From Candidatus Helarchaeota archaeon (GTDB lineage Archaea; Asgardarchaeota; Lokiarchaeia; Helarchaeales; HEL-GB-A), in the NCBI GenBank assembly GCA_016840125.1, contig JAEOSY010000005.1, forward strand, positions 1-23,163: a DNA stretch of 23,163 bases, written 5' to 3'. Within the stretch, counting starts at the first letter, position 1; every line of letters begins with the position of its first letter. A program made the position numbers and the translations under genes. The notes beneath the pieces are model-generated. The model had not been told where the DNA came from, searched no databases, and saw only the letters and a program-made list of their open reading frames with translations. This document shows, in pieces, positions 648-21,308 of the stretch.

Positions 648-1499
648 TTAAACAACGCTCTCAATGAATTTGAGATATTCGATACATTCCTTCGCATATA
701 GGTCGGCATCGGGACGTGTGCCTTTGAGGCTCTCATAGACATCTGCCCCAGTCGGGGGTAACGGTTCACATGCCATCGCGCCCACATAATCGATATCTTG
801 GAGAGCGCGAAAGATCTCAAACCAATCGGTCTGTCCACGTCCCGTAGACTTCCGATTGGAATCCGCCACATGAAAGTGAACTACATCCTTATTGGCCAGT
901 CGAATTGCTTGACCATTATTGTCCTCCTCAATGCTCGTATGGAAGAAATCCAACATCAATTTCACTTGGGAATGGTTGGTTTGCTTGAGTAGTTCGAGCG
1001 CTTGCTCGCATCGCTGCAAGAAAGCATTTTCATACCGATTAATGGGTTCAATCACAAACAGTACTTTCCCTACCGATTTAGCATGGTCACCTAGTTCTTG
1101 TAATGCATTCACACAGAGCTTTTGATTTGCTTCCGTCCAACCATCAGTCACATTGGCCACCCCCGAGGGGACAGTTAACACGAGTTTCGCTCCTAAATCC
1201 TCTCCAATTTTGAGACTGGCTTTGAGATATTCAAGTGTCCGTTTGATCACATCTTCATCTTTATCAATTAGATTGCGTCGCTTGGATTTCTCTGCAGCGC
1301 CCGTCATCATCGTGGCGCAGGAACTGCATGCAAGTTTATACTTTTTCATATAGTTGCGTACTTGTGTAATATCAAACTTTTCAGGCGCCGTAATCATCAG
1401 TTCAATCGCGTCATAACCATATTTCTGAAGCCGAATGAACTGTTTTTCAAGAGATTCTTCACCATATATCCAATTTGAGATACTATAGGTAATTTTCAT
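648..1499 (-). CDS. Sugar phosphate isomerase/epimerase, D-tagatose 3-epimerase-like TIM barrel
   Basis: The 283-residue product belongs to the xylose isomerase-like TIM-barrel superfamily (AP endonuclease 2 fold) and is the usual length for ketose 3-epimerases. The four metal ligands of that family fall at the expected spacing: Glu151 in IEPINRYEN, Asp184 in MLDFFHTS, His210 in HFHVADSNR and Glu245 in ACEPL. Arg216 matches the substrate-binding arginine after the histidine. The protein is cytoplasmic, with no signal peptide. It is the second gene of an operon, 16 bases after the corrinoid protein gene, so its substrate may relate to methyl-group metabolism rather than ordinary sugar catabolism; inosose or hydroxypyruvate isomerase-like activity cannot be excluded. 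Fold and metal site are secure; the substrate is unknown. Confidence 0.85.
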   Translation of the reverse strand: MKITYSISNWIYGEESLEKQFIRLQKYGYDAIELMITAPEKFDITQVRNYMKKYKLACSSCATMMTGAAEKSKRRNLIDKDEDVIKRTLEYLKASLKIGEDLGAKLVLTVPSGVANVTDGWTEANQKLCVNALQELGDHAKSVGKVLFVIEPINRYENAFLQRCEQALELLKQTNHSQVKLMLDFFHTSIEEDNNGQAIRLANKDVVHFHVADSNRKSTGRGQTDWFEIFRALQDIDYVGAMACEPLPPTGADVYESLKGTRPDADLYAKECIEYLKFIESVV

Positions 1500-1515
1500 C
1501 TTCTCTCAACCTTCT

Positions 1516-2175
1516 TTATTTCGCTTCTTCGATTAAAAGCCGAGCAATTTGCACCGCTTTCACGGCATCATCGGCATAGGCATCTGCCTTTACCTTTCGG
1601 GCATATTCTTCGGTTACAGGGGCGCCCCCCACCATGACTTTGACCTGATCCCGAAGCCCGAGTTCTTTCAACTTTTTAATAACGGTGCTGAAGTAAGGGA
1701 TAGTCGTAGATATCAGAGCGGACATGCATAGGATATCAGGCTTGACCCGTTGGATTGCTTGGATGAACTTTTGGGCAGGAACTTCGGTTCCTAAATCATA
1801 CACTTTAAACCCTGCCCCTTCCATGAAAAATTTCACTATATTTTTCCCGATATCATGAATATCCCCCTTCACGGTTCCTATAACGACAACAATTTCTTTT
1901 CTAGAACCACCCTCTTGCTTGCGATGGGCTTCAATTGCAGGTTTCAGCACCGCTAACGCATGTTCCATGGCTCGCGCCGCAATAAGAATTTCTGGTAGGT
2001 AATATTCTTGCTTTTGGAACTTTTCTCCTACTACTTCCATCGCTTGAATCAAGCAGTTTAAGCTGTCCATAGGATTTATACTCTGGTTTAATGATTCCTG
2101 GGATATTTGTTGCGCTAATTCCTGATCTCCCTCAATAATTGCCTTTGATAATTTGGGAAAGAGTTGCTCAGCCAT
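1516..2175 (-). CDS. Corrinoid (B12-binding) methyl-carrier protein, MtbC/MttC-like
   Basis: The 219-residue product has the two-part architecture of methyltransferase corrinoid proteins. An N-terminal helical cap (about 1-90, with MEVVGEKFQKQEYYLPEIL) is followed by a Rossmann-like B12 domain (94-219). The cobalt-ligand motif GDIHDIG gives Asp105, His107 and Gly110. Downstream, SALISTT (152-158) and VGGAPV match the conserved SxLxTT and GG segments that hold the dimethylbenzimidazole tail. It would carry a methyl group on cobalt between a substrate-specific methyltransferase and an acceptor. The ATG at 2175 has GGAG about eight bases upstream. It leads a two-gene operon with the epimerase-like protein and faces away from a UroD-type methyltransferase, its likely partner. 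No MtbB, MttB or MtaB homologue is in view, so the methyl donor is unknown. Confidence 0.92.
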   Translation of the reverse strand: MAEQLFPKLSKAIIEGDQELAQQISQESLNQSINPMDSLNCLIQAMEVVGEKFQKQEYYLPEILIAARAMEHALAVLKPAIEAHRKQEGGSRKEIVVVIGTVKGDIHDIGKNIVKFFMEGAGFKVYDLGTEVPAQKFIQAIQRVKPDILCMSALISTTIPYFSTVIKKLKELGLRDQVKVMVGGAPVTEEYARKVKADAYADDAVKAVQIARLLIEEAK

Positions 2176-2314
2176 ATAATTTACTCCTTGAATCTGTTAA
2201 ACTATGAATCTAAATACTAAATAAAAACCTTTTAACCCTAAAAAAAAGTATTTGAAAAGTTAATCAATTACAATGATAATGAACATCACCACTTATTTTA
2301 TTGTGGTTATGATT

Positions 2315-2337
2315 TGCGCAAAATTCTGGTTTGCGCA
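2315..2337. repeat. 8-bp inverted repeat (hairpin) beside TnpB remnant
   Basis: TGCGCAAA (2315-2322) and TTTGCGCA (2330-2337) are perfect reverse complements separated by seven bases. The first copy also reads as part of an ATTTGCGCAAAAT near-palindrome. It lies 65-90 bases before the transposase remnant, where IS200/IS605-type elements keep a subterminal hairpin. It could instead be an operator for the corrinoid operon whose start is 140 bases away on the other strand. Confidence 0.5.
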
Positions 2338-2401
2338 TTTAGGTTGGGCAGATTTATAACTGATGGTCGCGTACTCTCTTATGATTTGTATTTGAGGGTA
2401 G

Positions 2402-2701
2402 AATTTAAAGAGTATTAAGACAGTTCGCCTCACTTCTCGACCATTGACCCGACATAAATATACCCAAGTCGCCCGCACTATCTCCAGCTTTAAGGCGTCG
2501 GTGAACTTCTTGATCGCGAAGTGTGTGGAGAATCCGCTATTTCAGAAAACGTCCAAGAAGGGAATTACCTCTTATAATTATTCCTCGTACCCCACCATTC
2601 GCAAAAGCTTTTATCATGAGTGGAAAGCGAAGTTTTCAGGTATCCATACTCACTACTGCCACTCCACCGCCCGAGTCACGAAGGAGATCTTAAGACGGTA
2701 A
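2402..2701 (+). pseudogene. TnpB-like (IS605/IS607 OrfB) N-terminal remnant
   Basis: An open frame from 2402 (TAG just before it, no ATG) to the TAA at 2699-2701 encodes about 99 residues that look like the N-terminal part of an archaeal OrfB/TnpB protein. Features are a basic SIKTVRLTSRPLTRHKY start, the NFLIAKCVENPLF helix, a YSSYPTIRKSFYHEWKAKF segment and HTHYCHSTARVTKEILRR. Intact TnpB is about 400 residues; the whole RuvC nuclease part with its D-E-D residues and the zinc finger is missing. An ATT (2414) stands where a start might have been (I-K-T-V). The fragment fills the region between the two divergent methyl-transfer genes. Family assignment rests on recalled similarity of this N-terminal segment. 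Confidence 0.6.
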
Positions 2702-2813
2702 TCAAAATTCCATTTCCTTTCGGTTCAACTTATTTTCTTTGGATTGTTCAAGAAGTAATATATTTAGAGATGTATGAAGGTATTATTTTTGAATAAAATG
2801 TGGAGAAATTAAA

Positions 2814-4010
2814 ATGGTTACGAAACGGGATCGCGTCTTAAGGGCACTGAATCGAGAGGAACCAGATCGTGTCCCCATGTTTGAACTAATGGCGACCCCA
2901 GCTAGTCGAGCTGGGGCATATGGTACAAAGATGTTAGGTATGCTTCAGAATCGCGCAAGGGGACCTATCTTGAATAAAATAATAAAGGGTATCTGGACAC
3001 TCTTACAGAGAAAAAGGCGGGTATTAATCTTACGTAGAGTTGGAGCATTAATTGCAACTATGGTTAATATTGGGTTGATGCAGAACGCAGTACGTTATGA
3101 CCTAGATGCCGCATCTATTTTTCTTGCACCTATAGCCACTAATGGAGACGTCACATCACTTGAACACTACCAGGATGAGTATGGGCGAGTTAATAAAATC
3201 TCAGGGGAAGGGGTTCTTTGGTATGATGGGGGTAGATTGAATAGTCACGAAGCCCTCGATGAATTGGGGTTCCCAAATCCGCTAGATCCGTTTCGCCTTC
3301 AGTGTATGGATAAGGCCCTTGAAATCGCGGAGAAGAATGGAATCTTCGTTATGCCTTGCATCGGTGGTATGATGGAGGTTTTGTATGAAGGGGTTGGGAT
3401 GGAGAAATTCTTCTATCTCCTATACGATGACCCCAGCTTTATTCGCCGGATCATGGATTTGCAAAAAAGATTCTTGATCGAGTTAGCCAAATATCTAATT
3501 GATGAACGAGGTATAGAAGCAATCATCTTTGGGGATGATTCAGCCTACAAAAGTGGTCCTATGATGAGCGTCAAGCATTTTGAACAATACGTTTTTCCGC
3601 GCTATAAATCCATTTTCAATACAGTGCATAAGCGGGGCGCGAAAGCAATCATCCATTCAGACGGGGACACGCGGCTTATCCTCCCGGGGTGGATCAAAGC
3701 AGGGGTAGATGCCGTGCATCCATGGGAGCCAACTTCGGGTTGGCGGTTGAGCGAAGCCAAGGATGCGTGGGGTGATAAAATCTGCATCCTCGGGAATATT
3801 GATTGTAATACCCTAACTTATGGGCCCGACTCGAGAATTCAGCGCGAGGTCATCGAAGCGATTCGCGATGCTGGACCCGGAGGAGGCTATATTATGTCTT
3901 CGGGGAACTCCATTCATTTTGGTATCAAACCCGAGCATTTTCAGGTGATGATCGATACGTGTCGGAAATATGGAACGTACCCGCTTCAAATTCCAGAAAA
4001 ATATAGATAG
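2814..4010 (+). CDS. Uroporphyrinogen decarboxylase-family methyltransferase (MtaA/MtbA-like fold)
   Basis: The 398-residue product has the UroD barrel, recognisable from the TKRDRVLRALNREEPDRVP start, the GDDSAYKSGPMMS segment (240-252), HSDGD (281-285), HPWEPTSGW (302-310), LGNID (326-330) and PGGGYIMSSGNSIHFG near the C-terminus. True HemE enzymes carry an N-terminal RQAGR substrate motif, which is absent; the DRVPMFELM start is that of the methyltransferase branch, which moves methyl groups between corrinoid proteins and thiols such as coenzyme M. The HxC zinc motif of MtaA is replaced by His281-Ser-Asp283, so the acceptor or metal site may differ. The ATG at 2814 has GGAGA seven bases upstream. 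It faces away from the corrinoid protein gene, suggesting they act together. Confidence 0.85.
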   Translation: MVTKRDRVLRALNREEPDRVPMFELMATPASRAGAYGTKMLGMLQNRARGPILNKIIKGIWTLLQRKRRVLILRRVGALIATMVNIGLMQNAVRYDLDAASIFLAPIATNGDVTSLEHYQDEYGRVNKISGEGVLWYDGGRLNSHEALDELGFPNPLDPFRLQCMDKALEIAEKNGIFVMPCIGGMMEVLYEGVGMEKFFYLLYDDPSFIRRIMDLQKRFLIELAKYLIDERGIEAIIFGDDSAYKSGPMMSVKHFEQYVFPRYKSIFNTVHKRGAKAIIHSDGDTRLILPGWIKAGVDAVHPWEPTSGWRLSEAKDAWGDKICILGNIDCNTLTYGPDSRIQREVIEAIRDAGPGGGYIMSSGNSIHFGIKPEHFQVMIDTCRKYGTYPLQIPEKYR

Positions 4011-4058: not shown

Positions 4059-4421
4059 TTATCCTACATTTGGATCATTCTGAAAAATCTTTAAAGCTGC
4101 CTTGGGGCTCTCAAAAATTGGAATTAGTGCAGTACCAGCACTGCCCCAGATACTTTCAAAAGCGGGTTTAAATCGAACCGGAATTGAAGATAATCCCATT
4201 TGCCCACCAGCTTTTTGCAGTGCTCTACCCGTATTGAGGAGTTTTCCAATGCCTGAGCTCCCGATAAATTCGATCCCTGTCAAATCTACGAGTACCTGCG
4301 TTTTCCCGGATTTAAGCATACTTGTTAGTTTCTCTTCTAGAATCATGGCTGCCTTTTCGTCCACACGTCCGTCTATTCTGGCAATAGTTATATTTCCCTC
4401 TGAAGTTATTTTAATATTCAT
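4059..4421 (-). CDS. STAS-domain protein (anti-sigma-factor antagonist type)
   Basis: This 120-residue single-domain protein matches the STAS fold of SpoIIAA/RsbV. Strand ITIARIDGRVD (11-21) is followed by a helix and then VDLTGIEFIGSSGIGKLL (45-62). In SpoIIAA the second serine of the DSSG loop is the phosphorylation site; here that position is Ser56, with Gly54 in place of the usual aspartate. Bacterial relatives switch partners according to phosphorylation by an HPK-type kinase; no kinase or phosphatase partner is in this window and archaea lack sigma factors, so the partner is unknown. GGTGAT lies about four bases before the ATG at 4421. It diverges from the GH13 gene across a 105-base shared region. 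Fold assignment is firm, role unknown. Confidence 0.85.
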   Translation of the reverse strand: MNIKITSEGNITIARIDGRVDEKAAMILEEKLTSMLKSGKTQVLVDLTGIEFIGSSGIGKLLNTGRALQKAGGQMGLSSIPVRFKPAFESIWGSAGTALIPIFESPKAALKIFQNDPNVG

Positions 4422-11249: not shown

Positions 11250-12233
11250 TTATTTGTTCGTCGTAGATGACTTAATTTTATTGATTATAGGCTCCAAAAT
11301 CTCAAATACAGCGGTATATATATCTTTAGCCCCGGTGAAGACAGCCCCAACGATTTTTTCGAGCGTCTCAGGGGGTAAAACAGTCTCAGAGACATGTTTG
11401 TATAATTGAGATTCCAAGAGGGTTTTGAGTTTGTTCCGGATAGTCGCGCGTTTCTTATTATTTAGTTTTCCGGAGCTTTCAAGATAGTCCCTATGCTTTT
11501 GAATTGCTTGAAATAACTCAGCTATACCACGTCCTTCAGTCGCAATGGTTCGTACAATGGGAGGTCGCCAGCCGGATTTCTGAGTATCGGACTCTAAGAG
11601 CATATTGAGATTGACTTTCAAGAAATCGCCACCCAAATCAGATTTATTTATTACTAGGACGTCAGCAATTTCGAGAATGCCAGCCTTTAGAACTTGAACG
11701 TGATCCCCAAGCCCAGCGACAGTCAATAAAAGAACAGTGTAGGCGAGGCGAAAGATATCCACTTCGGATTGCCCCGCCCCAACCGTTTCTATTAGAATAT
11801 AGTTCATTCCATAGGCATCATAAAGTTGAACAATATCATAAACTGCTTTCGAAATACCACCCATGCTCCCTCGCGAGGCAACACTCCGGATAAAGACCTT
11901 GGGATTTAGGATGATATCTCGCATACGGACCCGATCTCCCAAGAATGCGCCCCCGTAAATAGGTGAGGAGGGATCTACGGAAATTATCCCGACCTGCTGG
12001 TCTTTATTAGTTAGATATTCAACCATTTGAGTGATTAACGTGCTCTTACCAGTACCAGGCGAACCAGTAAGACCTATGATGTAAGGATCATGTGAGGATT
12101 TACAGAGTTTACTTAATAATTTACGTGCAATTTCAGGATTGTTTTCGATAAGTGTGATGATCCGTGCCAAGGCTGTCCGATCTTGGTTCAAAAATCGAGA
12201 GATAAGATCATCTAAATCGTCGATTTGACTCAT
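11250..12233 (-). CDS. meaB: Methylmalonyl-CoA mutase-associated GTPase MeaB (ArgK family)
   Basis: The 327-residue G3E-family GTPase guards loading of adenosylcobalamin into the mutase and removal of damaged cofactor. The P-loop GSPGTGKS is at 57-64, the Mg-binding SVDPSSP at 85-91, a conserved RVRMRD at 101-106, ETVGAGQSE at 149-157 (switch region) and the base-recognition NKSD at 196-199. Length and motif order fit MeaB. It lies 25 bases after the B12-binding subunit gene and is read with it; the large subunit is divergent. The clustering makes the mutase the clear client. The C-terminal 80 residues form the helical dimerisation part. Confidence 0.94.
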   Translation of the reverse strand: MSQIDDLDDLISRFLNQDRTALARIITLIENNPEIARKLLSKLCKSSHDPYIIGLTGSPGTGKSTLITQMVEYLTNKDQQVGIISVDPSSPIYGGAFLGDRVRMRDIILNPKVFIRSVASRGSMGGISKAVYDIVQLYDAYGMNYILIETVGAGQSEVDIFRLAYTVLLLTVAGLGDHVQVLKAGILEIADVLVINKSDLGGDFLKVNLNMLLESDTQKSGWRPPIVRTIATEGRGIAELFQAIQKHRDYLESSGKLNNKKRATIRNKLKTLLESQLYKHVSETVLPPETLEKIVGAVFTGAKDIYTAVFEILEPIINKIKSSTTNK

Positions 12234-12258
12234 GGCGATGCCTACAAGAAAAAAAGGG

Positions 12259-12660
12259 TTAACTTTTGACTAATTTATATATATAATCAACGATGGTTTT
12301 AGTAGGTGACCCAGGGCCGAAGATCTCACTTACGCCCTGTTTTTTTAATTTCGATATTTCTTCGGGAAGAACAATAGTGCCACCGGCAAGGATGAATTTG
12401 TCCCCAATCCCGGCTTTTTTGGCGAGATCGATAACGCGAGGTATCAAAGTCATATGCGCTCCGCTTAAAATAGACAAACCAATGAAATCGACATCTTCTT
12501 GAAGAGCAGCATCAACAACTTGCTCAGGAGTTTGATGGAGACCCGTATAGATTACTTCAATTCCGGCATCCCGTAACGCCATACTCACCACTTTGGCACC
12601 ACGGTCATGCCCATCTAGTCCCGGCTTTGCCATCAAAAAACGCAACTTCCGTTTGGACAT
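12259..12660 (-). CDS. mcmA2: Methylmalonyl-CoA mutase small (B12-binding) subunit
   Basis: The 133-residue product is a stand-alone cobalamin domain of the mutase C-terminal type: [17 protein letters not shown] contains the Asp16-x-His18-x-x-Gly21 cobalt motif, followed by SILSGAH and AGGTIV for the nucleotide tail. The open frame continues upstream to 12843, but the added 61 residues overlap the divergent large subunit and have no B12-domain features. The ATG at 12660 has GAGAGGT just before it and begins with the usual MSKRKLRF, so I take it as the start. The archaeal arrangement splits the mutase into this subunit and a catalytic chain, here read divergently across 107 bases. Confidence 0.93.
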
Positions 12661-12767
12661 ATAAGACCTCTCAACATTAATAACAAGTAATTCGATATTA
12701 TTATGAAATGCTTTATAGTTTTCTGAAATTAGGTTGTAATAGTATGAAGCATCTAGAGTGAAGGACA

Positions 12768-14411
12768 ATGTTGGACGAGAAATTATTAAAGGCGGAAAAG
12801 TCGGCAAAAACTGGCAAGGAACGGTCTGATAAGTTTCGGACACTCTCCAATATAGAAGTAAAGAAAGAATATACTCCTGCAGACATAAAAATCAATTATG
12901 AGAAGGATCTAGGAAAGCCTGGCGAATATCCTTTCATGAGGGGGGTGTATGACACGATGTATCGAGGGCGTCTTTGGACCATGCGCCAGTTTGCGGGTTT
13001 TGGAACCGCAGAGGATACAAATGCACGGTTTAAATATTTACTTGAACATGGAGAAACGGGTTTAAGCACCGCATTTGACTTTCCCACCCTATATGGGCGT
13101 GACTCCGACGATCCCCTCGCCGAAGGGGAAGTGGGAAAATGTGGGGTCGCCATATCTTCGCTGTTGGATATGGAAATTCTATTTGATGGAATCCCACTAG
13201 ATAAAGTCTCTACCAGCATGACGATTAATGGTCCAGCTGCAATTGTCTGGGCGTTTTACTTAGCCAACGCGAAAAAACAAGGCATCCCCTTCACGGAATT
13301 AAGAGGCACGATTCAGAACGACATCCTCAAAGAATATATTGCCCAGAAATCGTGGATATTTCCGCCTGAACCGTCTATGCGGTTGATAATTGACACCTTT
13401 GAGTTTGGAACTGACCAAGTCCCAAAGTGGAATACGGTGAGTATAAGCGGTTACCATATTAGGGAAGCTGGAAGCACCGCAGTCCAAGAATTAGCATTCA
13501 CGCTTGCGGATGGATTAGCGTATGTTGATGCAGCCCTCGAACGAGGGATGACCTTAGATGCTTTTGCACCAAGATTGTCGTTCTTTTTTAATTCACACAA
13601 TTACTTCTTTGAAGAAATTGCGAAGTTCAGAGCTGCACGACGGATCTGGGCAAATGAAATGAAAAAGCGTGGAGCAGAAGATCCGAGATCTCTAAAAATG
13701 AGGTTCCATACCCAAACGGCAGGCTGTTCCCTCACAGCCCAGCAACCTGACAATAATATCGTTCGCACGACCCTCCAAGCATTATCGGCAGTCCTTGGGG
13801 GGACGCAGTCCTTGCATACGAACTCCAAAGATGAGGCACTCTGTCTCCCCACTCAAGGTGCAGTCATGACGGCCCTCCGTACGCAACAAATCATTGCCCA
13901 TGAGAGTGGAGTGACCGATACCATTGATCCACTTGCAGGGTCCTATTACATGGAGTGGCTCACGACTAAGATGGAAGAAGAAACCTACAAGTATTTCAAG
14001 AAGATTGAAGATATTGGTGGAGTGATTGCGGGGATTAAGCAAGGATTTTTCCAACTTGATATCGCGAAAGCCGCGTACCGATATCAAAAAGAGATTGAGA
14101 CAAAGAAGCGGTTAGTAGCCGGCGTAAATGAGTTTAAACTGCCGGGTGATGATGAAATCAATATTCCTGTTCTAAAGATTGACCCAGAGGTTGAACGATC
14201 CCAGCATAATCGATTGAAGAAGTTACGGGAAACGCGTGATAATGCTAAAGTTGAGGAATCTTTACAGAAACTTGAAGAGGTGGCGAAGAAAGAAGATGAA
14301 AATGTGATGCCTTATTTGATTGATGCTGCCCTCGCTTATGCCACCCTGGGGGAAATCCGTCAGGCTTTAGAAAATGTATTTGGCACGTATAAACAGATTG
14401 AACCTTTCTGA
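12768..14411 (+). CDS. mcmA1: Methylmalonyl-CoA mutase large (catalytic) subunit
   Basis: The 547-residue chain is the archaeal catalytic half of the mutase, which interconverts methylmalonyl-CoA and succinyl-CoA with adenosylcobalamin. Visible motifs include [15 protein letters not shown] (54-68), [10 protein letters not shown] (181-190), PPEPSMR (199-205), [10 protein letters not shown] (226-235) and SLHTNS. Tyr65 and Arg205, which in the Propionibacterium enzyme (Tyr89, Arg207) hold the free carboxylate, are kept, favouring methylmalonyl-CoA over isobutyryl- or hydroxyisobutyryl-CoA. His230 matches the catalytic histidine. One departure is [10 protein letters not shown] (107-116), where a tyrosine usual in THRGYDSD-type sequences is arginine. 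The B12 domain is a separate gene. No epimerase or propionyl-CoA carboxylase gene is nearby. AAGGA lies close before the ATG. Confidence 0.95.
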
Positions 14412-14447
14412 AAAGATTGAATTACGTTCCATAAGTTGGAACAAGTT

Positions 14448-14732
14448 ATGTCATCAACAACAGAATTATATTTTGGAAACTTATTATTAAAAATGGTAAT
14501 GGTAATGGTGAAGATTGATGAACAAGGTAGAATAATAATACCAAAAGAAATACGTGAGAAATTAAAATTAATTGGAGAAGTGGAGATAGTAGAGGTAAAA
14601 GAAGGTATAATTCTCAAACCGAAACAAACTCTTACTTGGAAAAAATTCTATAAAGATAAGTTAAAGATGAATTGGGATGAAGTGCATAAGTTAGACCTTT
14701 CAGAGGAAGATTTAACTGATTTATGGATATGA
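14448..14732 (+). CDS. AbrB/MazE-type antitoxin
   Basis: The SpoVT-AbrB swapped-hairpin domain is clear: MVKIDEQGRIIIPKEIREKL followed by EVEIVEVKEGIILKP. Several starts are possible. The ATG at 14448 gives 94 residues, including a 20-residue leader; a run of ATG codons (14493-14509, GTAATG repeats) just before the domain could start a 75-79-residue form, which is the more usual length. A C-terminal tail (WKKFYKDKLKMNW, then acidic DLSEEDLTDLWI) would bind a toxin. It ends five bases before the PIN gene. The toxin is frameshifted, so the antitoxin may now be an orphan. Confidence 0.75.
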   Translation: MSSTTELYFGNLLLKMVMVMVKIDEQGRIIIPKEIREKLKLIGEVEIVEVKEGIILKPKQTLTWKKFYKDKLKMNWDEVHKLDLSEEDLTDLWI

Positions 14733-14736
14733 TCGA

Positions 14737-15320
14737 TTGAAGTTGAAAAAATTATTAGATGCTAATTTCTTAATTTATTCGCTTTTAGAAGACCATCCGG
14801 CATCAAAAGTTTGTGAGAAACTCATCCTTTCTTGTGAAAATAAGTTTGATTGGATCACTTCACCCATTACTTTGATTGAGACTTTTTATGTCTTAATTAA
14901 AATATATGGGCAAAAAATTGAGGACGTATATAATAAAATAAAAGCGATTGTAAAACTACCTCTGGGGATTGTTTCACTTGATCAAATTCTAGTGATTTCA
15001 GCATATTGGACAAACGAATAAGACATCAAATAGATATCAATGATGCAATATTACTTCAAATCGGCATTGAGATTGGAATACCTATAATTGCCACGGATGA
15101 CAAGAGATTAGCTAAAGCAGTAGAAGATTATGGTATTGTTTGTGAAAATCCAATAACTAAAGAAATCCGACAGGAAATGGCTGAATGGGAAAGGATTAAT
15201 TTACCAGAAAAGGGGATTGTACGAATTTACAAGGGAGTTCATAAATGGCTTGAGGAAAAAGATAAATCCATTGCTGATGAATTTAAATCCCTTACAAAAG
15301 GATTAACTCGAATGCTTTAA
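14737..15320 (+). pseudogene. PIN-domain toxin split by a frameshift
   Basis: Two overlapping frames together make one PIN protein. The first (14737-15021, TTG start) holds LLDANFLIYSLLED with the first Asp and SPITLIETFYVLI with the Glu, ending SAYWTNE. The second frame is open through that point and continues QIDINDAILLQIGIEIGIPIIATDDKRLAKA with the third and fourth acidic residues, then a 60-residue helical extension ending LTRML at 15320. Going from the first frame to the second needs one extra base, so a single base was lost near 15000-15020, or the assembly has an error there. No slippery heptamer is seen. The joined protein would be about 190 residues. It pairs with the AbrB antitoxin just upstream. 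Confidence 0.75.
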
Positions 15321-20660: not shown

Positions 20661-21308
20661 TTAAGAGTTTATTTTGATAAAAGCGTTTGGAATAAAAGCC
20701 GATACAAAAATTGTCTTGCCCGCTTGCCAGATTTGAATCCCCTCCTGCACAGCTTTTTTCACATCAACTTCTAATATGATTAATTCGCCCTTATGCCGTC
20801 GCCCTACAATTTCCGCATCCTTAAGCGAAGTAGTTAAATGCACTAGATTTCGTCCCATCGGCTTAAGTCCTTCCTGCTTTATTTTCTGGTACGCCCGCAG
20901 ATTCGTTCCATGATATAAGAGTTCAGGTAAATCGGTCCGTGTAACTTCAATCTTGATATTCTTCAAGGAATGGCCGTATCTGGCACGGATCCTATCATTT
21001 CTTATTTCAAACCGCCCTTTTAAATCTAGAAAAATCAGCGCATCTATGACCTTTCGAGAGATCCAAGGGGAGTTTCGAACTGTTTTTAGAATAGTTATCA
21101 GATCCTCTATTGGAATTTGCGTAAACCCCTTAACATCCAGTTCAATACCGATGCGACTGGGATTATGACGTAAATTATAGCTGAGAAATTTACTTAAATT
21201 CCGACGTTGTTTTTCGGATAAAATAAATTTCCGTGGATGCTCGCAATTCTTAGGGTTAGGAGAATAGTCCTGACAGGTTTCACAATAATAGTAGTTCTCT
21301 ATTGACAT
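20661..21308 (-). CDS. kptA: RNA 2'-phosphotransferase with N-terminal zinc ribbon (Tpt1/KptA)
   Basis: The 215-residue protein would remove an internal 2'-phosphate from RNA using NAD+, making ADP-ribose 1'',2''-cyclic phosphate. An N-terminal knuckle (Cys9, Cys12, Cys22, His24) precedes the KptA domain. LSKFLSYNLRHNP gives the catalytic Arg47-His48 pair; IRARYGHS (107-114) gives the second arginine (Arg108) with a Tyr where many members have Gln; LYHGT (131-135) and VHLTT (156-160) form the NAD pocket; GRRHKG supplies the last arginine. All expected catalytic residues seem present. In eukaryotes the enzyme completes tRNA splicing; in archaea, whose ligase leaves no 2'-phosphate, its substrate is uncertain, with ADP-ribose capping of RNA or repair as alternatives. 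Confidence 0.93.
   Translation of the reverse strand: MSIENYYYCETCQDYSPNPKNCEHPRKFILSEKQRRNLSKFLSYNLRHNPSRIGIELDVKGFTQIPIEDLITILKTVRNSPWISRKVIDALIFLDLKGRFEIRNDRIRARYGHSLKNIKIEVTRTDLPELLYHGTNLRAYQKIKQEGLKPMGRNLVHLTTSLKDAEIVGRRHKGELIILEVDVKKAVQEGIQIWQAGKTIFVSAFIPNAFIKINS

What the first reader, a model, noticed from the sequence alone, without database searches (positions are those of the whole stretch)
648..4010. Compact corrinoid methyl-transfer locus with an epimerase-like partner and no known methyl-donor enzyme
A corrinoid carrier, a UroD-type methyltransferase and a tagatose-3-epimerase-like TIM barrel are grouped, but no MtaB, MtbB or MttB homologue is present. The TIM barrel keeps all four metal ligands (E151, D184, H210, E245) and shares an operon with the carrier. 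It may process the methylated substrate or its demethylated product, such as an O-methylated sugar or polyol. This would be a demethylation module with a new substrate. The UroD protein has HSD instead of the HxC zinc motif of MtaA, which also suggests different chemistry.
Basis: partly seen in the sequence, partly recalled or inferred. Interest (0 to 1): 0.7.

Follow-up and report, generated by a model that had tools for sequence, protein, structure and literature searches.

The report
Asgard B12-dependent sugar demethylation genes (predicted)
This Asgard archaeon carries a vitamin-B12 methyl carrier, a likely B12-dependent demethylase and a sugar-epimerase-like gene side by side; relatives of the demethylase in other Asgard genomes often sit in sugar-breakdown gene clusters, which suggests, but does not prove, that these microbes strip methyl groups from methylated sugars without oxygen.

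Summary
'No known methyl-donor enzyme' does not follow: donor enzymes of corrinoid O-demethylases are themselves UroD-superfamily proteins (PMC13222342). HSD is no oddity: 103 of 120 listed sequences have HxD. The trio is not conserved: in the two genomes with close UroD and carrier, all three families lie apart; the epimerase family neighbours a UroD in 1 of 8 genomes and a carrier in 0 of 8. Yet the sugar idea gains support. Related UroDs occur in 93 of 227 Asgard genomes; 18 of 60 regions hold a divergent GH94, GPH symporter or PF01261 gene within three genes, 10 of 13 when a carrier is near; 20 control regions hold none. Conversely, UroDs form 19 of 136 ORFs within two genes of divergent GH94 genes and 1 of 224 farther off. 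Best reading: UroD is the demethylase (MT-I), probably for methylated carbohydrates; the epimerase is at most a local partner. Substrate untested.

The parts
648..1499 (-). Xylose-isomerase-like TIM barrel, 283 aa, related to ketose 3-epimerases; metal ligands E151, D184, H210, E245
   Evidence: PF01261 129.5 bits; best NCBIfam keto_glucon_epim_IolO 162.7 bits against a cut-off of 300; PDB 3vnk E 1.3e-27; AlphaFold2 mean pLDDT 90.6, residues 214-222 and 251-253 below 50; Foldseek best D-allulose 3-epimerase 7cj9
1516..2175 (-). Corrinoid methyl-carrier protein, 219 aa, cap plus B12-binding domain, GDIHDIG motif
   Evidence: PF02607 and PF02310; TIGR02370 191.3 bits against 215.3; PDB 7xcn MttC E 1.7e-47; D104, I105, H106, I108, G109 invariant in 14 aligned sequences, window included
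2444..2701 (+). 85-aa remnant of a TnpB-like protein between carrier and UroD genes
   Evidence: 58-62% identity over residues 1-84 to three places in G007 and 56% over 1-57 to a fourth; the copy at L336:138-1496 has PF07282 Cas12f1-like TNB 56.2 bits; the remnant itself has no Pfam match
2814..4010 (+). UroD-superfamily protein, 398 aa, HSD (281-283) and N365 in place of MtaA's His-Cys...Cys; predicted methyl-donor methyltransferase (MT-I)
   Evidence: PF01208 112.5 bits; below every NCBIfam cut-off; alignment to MtaA 4ay7; AlphaFold2 mean pLDDT 92.5; Foldseek best 4ay7, TM 0.80 by target length
4059..4421 (-). STAS-domain protein; neighbour, link not claimed
   Evidence: PF01740 43.5 bits
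4527..6230 (+). GH13 alpha-amylase-family enzyme, two genes beyond UroD; carbohydrate context only
   Evidence: PF00128 424.1 bits; none of the 25 NCBIfam models shown (of 36) reaches its cut-off

Best explanation
The UroD protein is the substrate-specific methyltransferase (MT-I) of a corrinoid system. It moves a methyl group from an O-methyl compound to Co(I) on the 219-aa carrier (or a paralogous carrier); an activase and a methyl-corrinoid:H4MPT or thiol methyltransferase (MT-II) are encoded elsewhere in the genome. The most likely class of substrate is a methylated carbohydrate (O-methyl sugar or methyl glycoside). The TIM barrel, co-transcribed with the carrier, would be a ketose epimerase or isomerase acting on the demethylated sugar, as a lineage-specific recruit rather than a core part. 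Shown here: gene identity, residue pattern, clade-level linkage to carbohydrate genes, presence of activase and MtrH families in relatives. Inferred: methyl transfer, direction, substrate, co-transcription, and any role of the TIM barrel.
For: Residues: HSD and N365 in the positions of MtaA's HIC and later Cys; PMC10418091 states that O-methyltransferases of this superfamily have Cys ligands replaced by carboxylate or non-coordinating residues. Fold matches MtaA as well as HemE. Carrier 638 bp away and divergent, as in the Freyarchaeota-like clusters. Clade context: 93 of 227 Asgard genomes have such UroDs; of 60 regions, a carrier lies within three genes in 13, and 10 of those 13 also have a divergent GH94, GPH-type symporter or PF01261 gene, against 8 of 47 without a carrier (Fisher p 1e-4); 20 arbitrary control regions, 19 of them on contigs that also gave a UroD region, have none of the seven families scanned. 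Reverse test starting from Pfam GH94 hits: UroD within two genes in 16 of 40 loci; 19 of 136 near ORFs against 1 of 224 farther ones. In G084, G085 and G086 an HSD UroD, a second UroD and a carrier followed by GH3 lie together; in G083 the UroD pair and the carrier-GH3 pair lie on two contigs (GH3 of L167 by Pfam, the others by BLAST clustering). In a midpoint-rooted FastTree the window clade groups (support 0.97) with the large clade holding the GH94/symporter clusters, whose own support is 0.60; the GH3-linked UroDs lie just outside. RACo_C_ter in 17 of 17 and MtrH in 16 of 17 relatives tested.
Against: No assay and no substrate. The closest UroD homologues in held genomes (G087, G089) have no carrier, GH94-type, GH3 or symporter gene in the fetched regions. 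I saw the three-gene set nowhere else. A TnpB-like remnant separates UroD from carrier. UroDs of the GH94-linked clade are only about a third identical to the window protein (P0040 and P0059 34%) and have His, not Asn, at position 365. Of 36 HxD regions, 21 lack the carbohydrate genes scanned. Many UroDs beside GH94 genes in the reverse test, and the UroD of L008, are HCC or HSC types, so the linkage is to UroDs in general as much as to the HxD group; 24 of 40 GH94-type loci have no UroD within two genes. Related genomes are not independent samples.
Confidence: 0.42

Rival explanations
1. The grouping is incidental. A solitary corrinoid carrier, a general sugar epimerase and a divergent UroD lie close together without forming one pathway; carriers and UroDs are so numerous in Asgard genomes that neighbours arise by chance.
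For: The first look gave 0 to 71 UroD candidates in the genomes listed, and all 7 genomes have 5-6 carrier matches. TIM close family: UroD nearby in 1 of 8 genomes, carrier in 0 of 8. In G087 and G089 the families are apart. TnpB-like remnant between UroD and carrier. By eye, no longest-contig length is shared between the close TIM, UroD and carrier homologues listed, apart from the window's own.
Against: Carrier and TIM are 16 bp apart on one strand. PF01261 TIM barrels also lie beside UroDs in L008 and in L217, L219, L220. The clade as a whole is linked to carbohydrate genes.
Confidence: 0.33
2. The UroD protein is an MT-I for methoxylated aromatics or haloalkanes, like MtoB/OdmB/CdmB, and the sugar genes are irrelevant.
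For: Known UroD-type MT-I enzymes act on these substrates and CdmB homologues occur in Sigynarchaeales (PMC13222342). CdmB 9rui is found by the family profile at E 2e-4.
Against: CdmB matches over only 140 residues and has no His at the HSD position (LSFQG). The recurrent neighbours identified in the clade are glycosidases and sugar transporters; aromatic-degradation genes were not searched for specifically.
Confidence: 0.13
3. The UroD protein is an MT-II (methylcorrinoid to thiol or pterin), and the donor enzyme is an MttB-type protein encoded elsewhere.
For: 12 of 17 relatives carry PF06253 MTTB proteins elsewhere. UroD-type MT-II (MtaA, MtbA) is a known role.
Against: It lacks both Cys of the MtaA-type site. 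G087, the nearest genome with close UroD and carrier, has no MTTB match. Several Asgard clusters contain both an HSD UroD and a separate MtaA-like UroD (HTC...C in L224; HxC with the third position unresolved in L222, L228, L229, L231), as if MT-I and MT-II were divided between them.
Confidence: 0.08
4. The UroD protein is a cofactor-free decarboxylase or other non-corrinoid enzyme of unknown role.
Against: TIGR01464 hemE 41.1 bits against 302.95; HemE lacks the His aligned with H281.
Confidence: 0.04

Closest known systems
Corrinoid O-demethylase systems with a UroD-superfamily MT-I (MtvB/OdmB/VdmB/MtoB; CdmB for chloromethane)
   Same: UroD-fold donor methyltransferase plus a corrinoid carrier (membership of these enzymes in the superfamily: PMC13222342)
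   Different: Sequence link to CdmB is marginal (E 2e-4); HSD motif absent from CdmB; no MT-II or activase family found in the window ORFs scanned; carbohydrate neighbours in related clusters
MtaA/MtbA/MtsA methylcobamide:CoM methyltransferases and Mlp proteins
   Same: Same fold (4ay7 is the best Foldseek match); metal-site His conserved
   Different: Cys positions hold Asp and Asn; NCBIfam scores far under cut-off
HemE uroporphyrinogen decarboxylase
   Different: 41.1 bits against a cut-off of 302.95
D-psicose/D-tagatose 3-epimerases and IolO (TM_0416)
   Same: TIM barrel, four metal ligands
   Different: Scores below equivalog cut-offs (162.7 and 137.9 against 300); a subfamily of its own with 48-92% identity inside, whose named members are nearly all Asgard
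MttC/MtbC/MtgC-type corrinoid proteins
   Same: Cap plus B12 domain; PDB 7xcn E 1.7e-47
   Different: No substrate-specific NCBIfam model met (206.6 against 370 for MtgC; 191.3 against 215.3 for TIGR02370)

Membership tests
UroD-type corrinoid O-demethylase MT-I | UroD-superfamily fold | tested here: met
UroD-type corrinoid O-demethylase MT-I | Corrinoid carrier encoded nearby | tested here: met
   Window 1516-2175, divergent, 638 bp between starts; but in relatives G087 and G089 no carrier next to the close homologue
UroD-type corrinoid O-demethylase MT-I | Sequence in the MtvB/OdmB/VdmB/MtoB/CdmB clade | tested here: inconclusive
   Only CdmB could be compared (E 2e-4 over 140 residues); no reference sequences for the others at hand for a tree
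UroD-type corrinoid O-demethylase MT-I | Methyl transfer from an O-methyl substrate to Co(I) carrier | not testable with these tools
   Needs an assay
MtaA/MtbA CoM methyltransferase | His-x-Cys...Cys zinc site | tested here: not met
   HSD...N
MtaA/MtbA CoM methyltransferase | NCBIfam score above curated cut-off | tested here: not met
   PRK06252 77.3 against 244; TIGR01463 68.3 against 235.4; MtaA_Meth 48.8 against 400
HemE | TIGR01464 above cut-off | tested here: not met
   41.1 against 302.95
Ketose 3-epimerase (DTE/DPE family) | TIM barrel with four metal ligands E, D, H, E | tested here: met
Ketose 3-epimerase (DTE/DPE family) | Curated equivalog score | tested here: not met
   IolO 162.7 and psicose epimerase 137.9 against 300
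Ketose 3-epimerase (DTE/DPE family) | Epimerase activity | not testable with these tools
   Needs an assay
Corrinoid methyl carrier | B12-binding cap plus Rossmann domain with DxHxxG | tested here: met
   PF02607, PF02310; motif in ORF, conserved in 14 aligned sequences
Asgard UroD/carrier/carbohydrate cluster (proposed here) | GH94-type, GH3 or GPH symporter gene within a few genes | tested here: not met
   None among the window ORFs scanned; instead a PF01261 TIM barrel and a GH13 enzyme two genes beyond UroD

The most novel reading that the evidence does not exclude
Asgard archaea possess a B12-dependent pathway that demethylates methylated carbohydrates: a sugar symporter, a divergent GH94 or GH3 enzyme, a UroD-type MT-I with an HxD site, a corrinoid carrier and a second, Cys-type UroD as MT-II. 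The window is a reduced, lineage-specific version in which a ketose-epimerase-like TIM barrel has joined the carrier operon. This would be a new substrate class for corrinoid methyltransferases and an oxygen-free counterpart of the P450 route for methylated sugars (the P450 route is recalled, not from a call).
Probability: 0.35. Interest if true: 0.75.

Novelty: new variant of a known kind. Interest (0 to 1): 0.55.

Why it matters
Asgard genomes carry many UroD and corrinoid genes without known substrates; [quoted passage not shown] The linkage to glycosidases and sugar transporters gives a concrete, testable substrate class. If right, it would open methylated plant and algal polysaccharides to anaerobic methyl-group metabolism in the archaea closest to eukaryotes.

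Tried and rejected
The three-gene cluster as a conserved unit: rejected. MttB elsewhere as the explanation of the carrier: cannot be excluded, but G087 lacks it. HSD as an anomaly: rejected. Fold as a way to tell methyltransferase from decarboxylase: failed, HemE and MtaA tie; CdmB is not among the rows shown, which is not evidence against it. Contig lengths of homologue lists compared by eye: no sign of adjacency elsewhere, weak evidence only.

Literature on corrinoid demethylation of methylated sugars: the listings showed me no such system; listings are capped (one search listed 12 of 825), only titles and starts of abstracts were seen for most papers, and most subscription journals are not in the library. 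A search inside PMC8630106 for structural terms gave nothing. PMC10989822 (passages) reports another archaeal O-demethylase (MtgB of Bathyarchaeia), said there to have no homology with known methyltransferases; I did not compare it with the window.

Limits of the counts. The symporter and divergent-GH94 models used for the UroD-centred count were built from those same loci, so that count is partly circular; the GH94-centred test started from Pfam hits and left out 9 matches already fetched around UroDs and a few fragment or outlier matches. One search scored at most 8 candidates per genome. Counts of the same thing differ by method: divergent GH94 in 9 of 77 loci by BLAST clustering, in 10 of 60 by HMM within three genes. 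HxD against HxC regions with a carbohydrate gene: 15 of 36 against 3 of 23 (my tally of the rows; Fisher p 0.02); one further region reads QxD. Control regions come from long contigs, test regions also from short ones that are cut at contig ends; genomes are related, so p values are only indicative. Carriers beside the TIM family were searched only in the 8 close loci (again) and the 3 paralogue loci; UroDs in all 79 loci, where only L008 was positive. Neighbours without a Pfam call were identified by BLAST clustering, by my local models or by eye.
Full report
What is there. The window holds a TIM-barrel gene (648-1499, minus), a corrinoid carrier gene (1516-2175, minus) and a divergent UroD gene (2814-4010, plus). 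Pfam confirms all three above cut-off. The carrier and TIM genes are 16 bp apart, so these two are a plausible operon; the UroD start is 638 bp from the carrier start. In the gap, 2444-2701 encodes 85 residues that are 58-62% identical over residues 1-84 to three places in genome G007, with a shorter fourth match; the 452-aa copy read there carries a Cas12f1-like TNB domain. The gap thus contains the remnant of a TnpB-like gene, and UroD may have come to lie next to the carrier secondarily (inference). Names of homologues point to Helarchaeota. No genome is held for the window.

The TIM barrel. Ligands E151, D184, H210 and E245 are invariant in 25 aligned sequences, window included, and the nearest solved relatives are ketose 3-epimerases. 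It belongs to a subfamily with 48-92% identity whose named members are nearly all Asgard. Among 227 Asgard genomes 8 have a close member and 3 a more distant one at E 1e-70. In the 8 close loci a UroD is near in one (L008) and a carrier in none. In four others (L158, L161, L163, L165) it lies beside a 3-dehydroquinate synthase II-like gene with GH57-type genes nearby (Pfam for the L163 copies). In L008 a UroD (HSC...H type) and the TIM gene are adjacent on one strand amid GH1, D-lyxose isomerase, two FGGY kinases, class II aldolase, RuBisCO-type and GH3 genes. Among the 79 TIM loci only L008 has a UroD.

Close UroD (at least 660 bits) and close carrier (at least 289 bits) are found only in G087 and G089 of 227 genomes. 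In both, UroD, carrier and the TIM paralogue lie on different contigs. The UroD neighbours are unrelated; in one G089 copy two sulfatase-like genes and a Gfo/Idh/MocA gene lie 1.5 to 9.5 kb away (Pfam on one of the sulfatases). The three-gene set is thus not conserved there. MttB-family proteins occur elsewhere in 12 of 17 relatives but not in G087; the activase family RACo_C_ter in 17 of 17; MtrH in 16 of 17. Parts spread over the genome are common in these relatives.

What the clade does elsewhere. A 57-row alignment of the UroD clade hits 93 of 227 Asgard genomes at E 1e-70 or better. I fetched 60 regions, taken down the ranking and spread over genomes, not chosen by context. Clustering of neighbours in 77 loci (these 60 and 17 seen before) and Pfam on one member each showed a recurrent set: corrinoid carrier, a ~900-aa GH94-superfamily protein (77.9 bits, cut-off 27), an MFS_2/GPH-type sugar:cation symporter (MFS_2 143.8 bits; TIGR00792 gph 91 bits, under its cut-off of 231), and a second, MtaA-like UroD. 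L222 and L229 hold all of them plus a third UroD, L228 all with the third UroD cut by the contig end (by eye); L224 lacks the symporter. Within three genes, 13 of 60 UroDs have a carrier, 18 of 60 a carbohydrate gene (GH94-type, symporter or PF01261), and 10 of the 13 with a carrier also have a carbohydrate gene. L217, L219 and L220 have a PF01261 TIM barrel (Pfam for L219). Twenty regions placed at arbitrary positions, 19 of them on contigs that also gave a UroD region, have none of the seven families scanned. In genomes G084, G085 and G086, called Freyarchaeota-like because a near named UroD (P0025) is from that group, an HSD UroD and a second UroD lie near a carrier followed by a GH3 gene; in G083 the UroD pair and the carrier-GH3 pair are on separate contigs (GH3 of L167 by Pfam).

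Reverse test. GH94 (PF17167) is found in 74 of 227 genomes, in a canonical group (~800 aa) and a divergent one (~900 aa, mostly 63-99 bits). UroDs make up 19 of 136 ORFs within two genes and 1 of 224 farther off. Many of these UroDs are HCC or HSC types, so the link is to the UroD family broadly.

Position of the window. In a midpoint-rooted FastTree of 134 UroDs the window clade groups (0.97) with the clade that holds the GH94/symporter clusters (itself 0.60), while the GH3-linked UroDs lie just outside. The window protein is thus bracketed by carbohydrate-linked relatives, though about a third identical to them. The window itself shows no GH94, GH3 or symporter among the ORFs scanned; it has the TIM barrel and a GH13 enzyme two genes past UroD.

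Conclusion. The likely mechanism is methyl transfer from an O-methyl group of a carbohydrate or glycoside by the UroD protein to Co(I) on the carrier, with activase and MT-II supplied from elsewhere. Gene identities, residue pattern and linkage are shown; methyl transfer, substrate and the TIM's role are inferred. The listings showed no corrinoid system for methylated sugars in the held library. I file it as a new variant of a known kind: a UroD-type corrinoid demethylase system with a predicted new substrate class.

Noticed in passing
window 2444-2701: Remnant of a TnpB-like gene between carrier and UroD; G007 holds longer copies.
   Followed up: yes
window 11250-14411: Methylmalonyl-CoA mutase locus: MeaB and B12-binding small subunit on minus, large subunit on plus; the listed ORF starts of the two subunits overlap by 76 bp, so at least one start is probably further in.
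   Followed up: partly
window 14436-15320: MazE-like antitoxin gene followed by a PIN-domain protein that appears split into two overlapping frames (14737-15021 and 15006-15320); frameshift or assembly error.
   Followed up: no
L174-L178 (G085, G084, G086, G083, G161): A 473-477 aa protein (no Pfam match for the L174 copy) lies just upstream of an HSD UroD in five genomes in conserved order.
   Followed up: no
L158, L161, L163, L165: The close TIM barrel has shared neighbours: a 3-dehydroquinate synthase II-like gene and, nearby, GH57-type genes (Pfam on L163).
   Followed up: partly
L008:5197-18473: Lokiarchaeal sugar cluster with RuBisCO-type, class II aldolase, two FGGY kinases, lyxose isomerase, GH1 and GH3 around a UroD-TIM pair.
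   Followed up: partly
L173:5543-9362 (G161): Two carrier-UroD pairs in tandem, the UroDs with HCC...H and HNE...G in the metal-site positions (read on the same gene pair in L136).
   Followed up: no
divergent group: A divergent ~900-aa GH94-superfamily group is widespread in Asgard genomes and often next to UroD genes; its own substrate is unknown.
   Followed up: partly
window 20661-21308: RNA 2'-phosphotransferase (Tpt1/KptA family).
   Followed up: no
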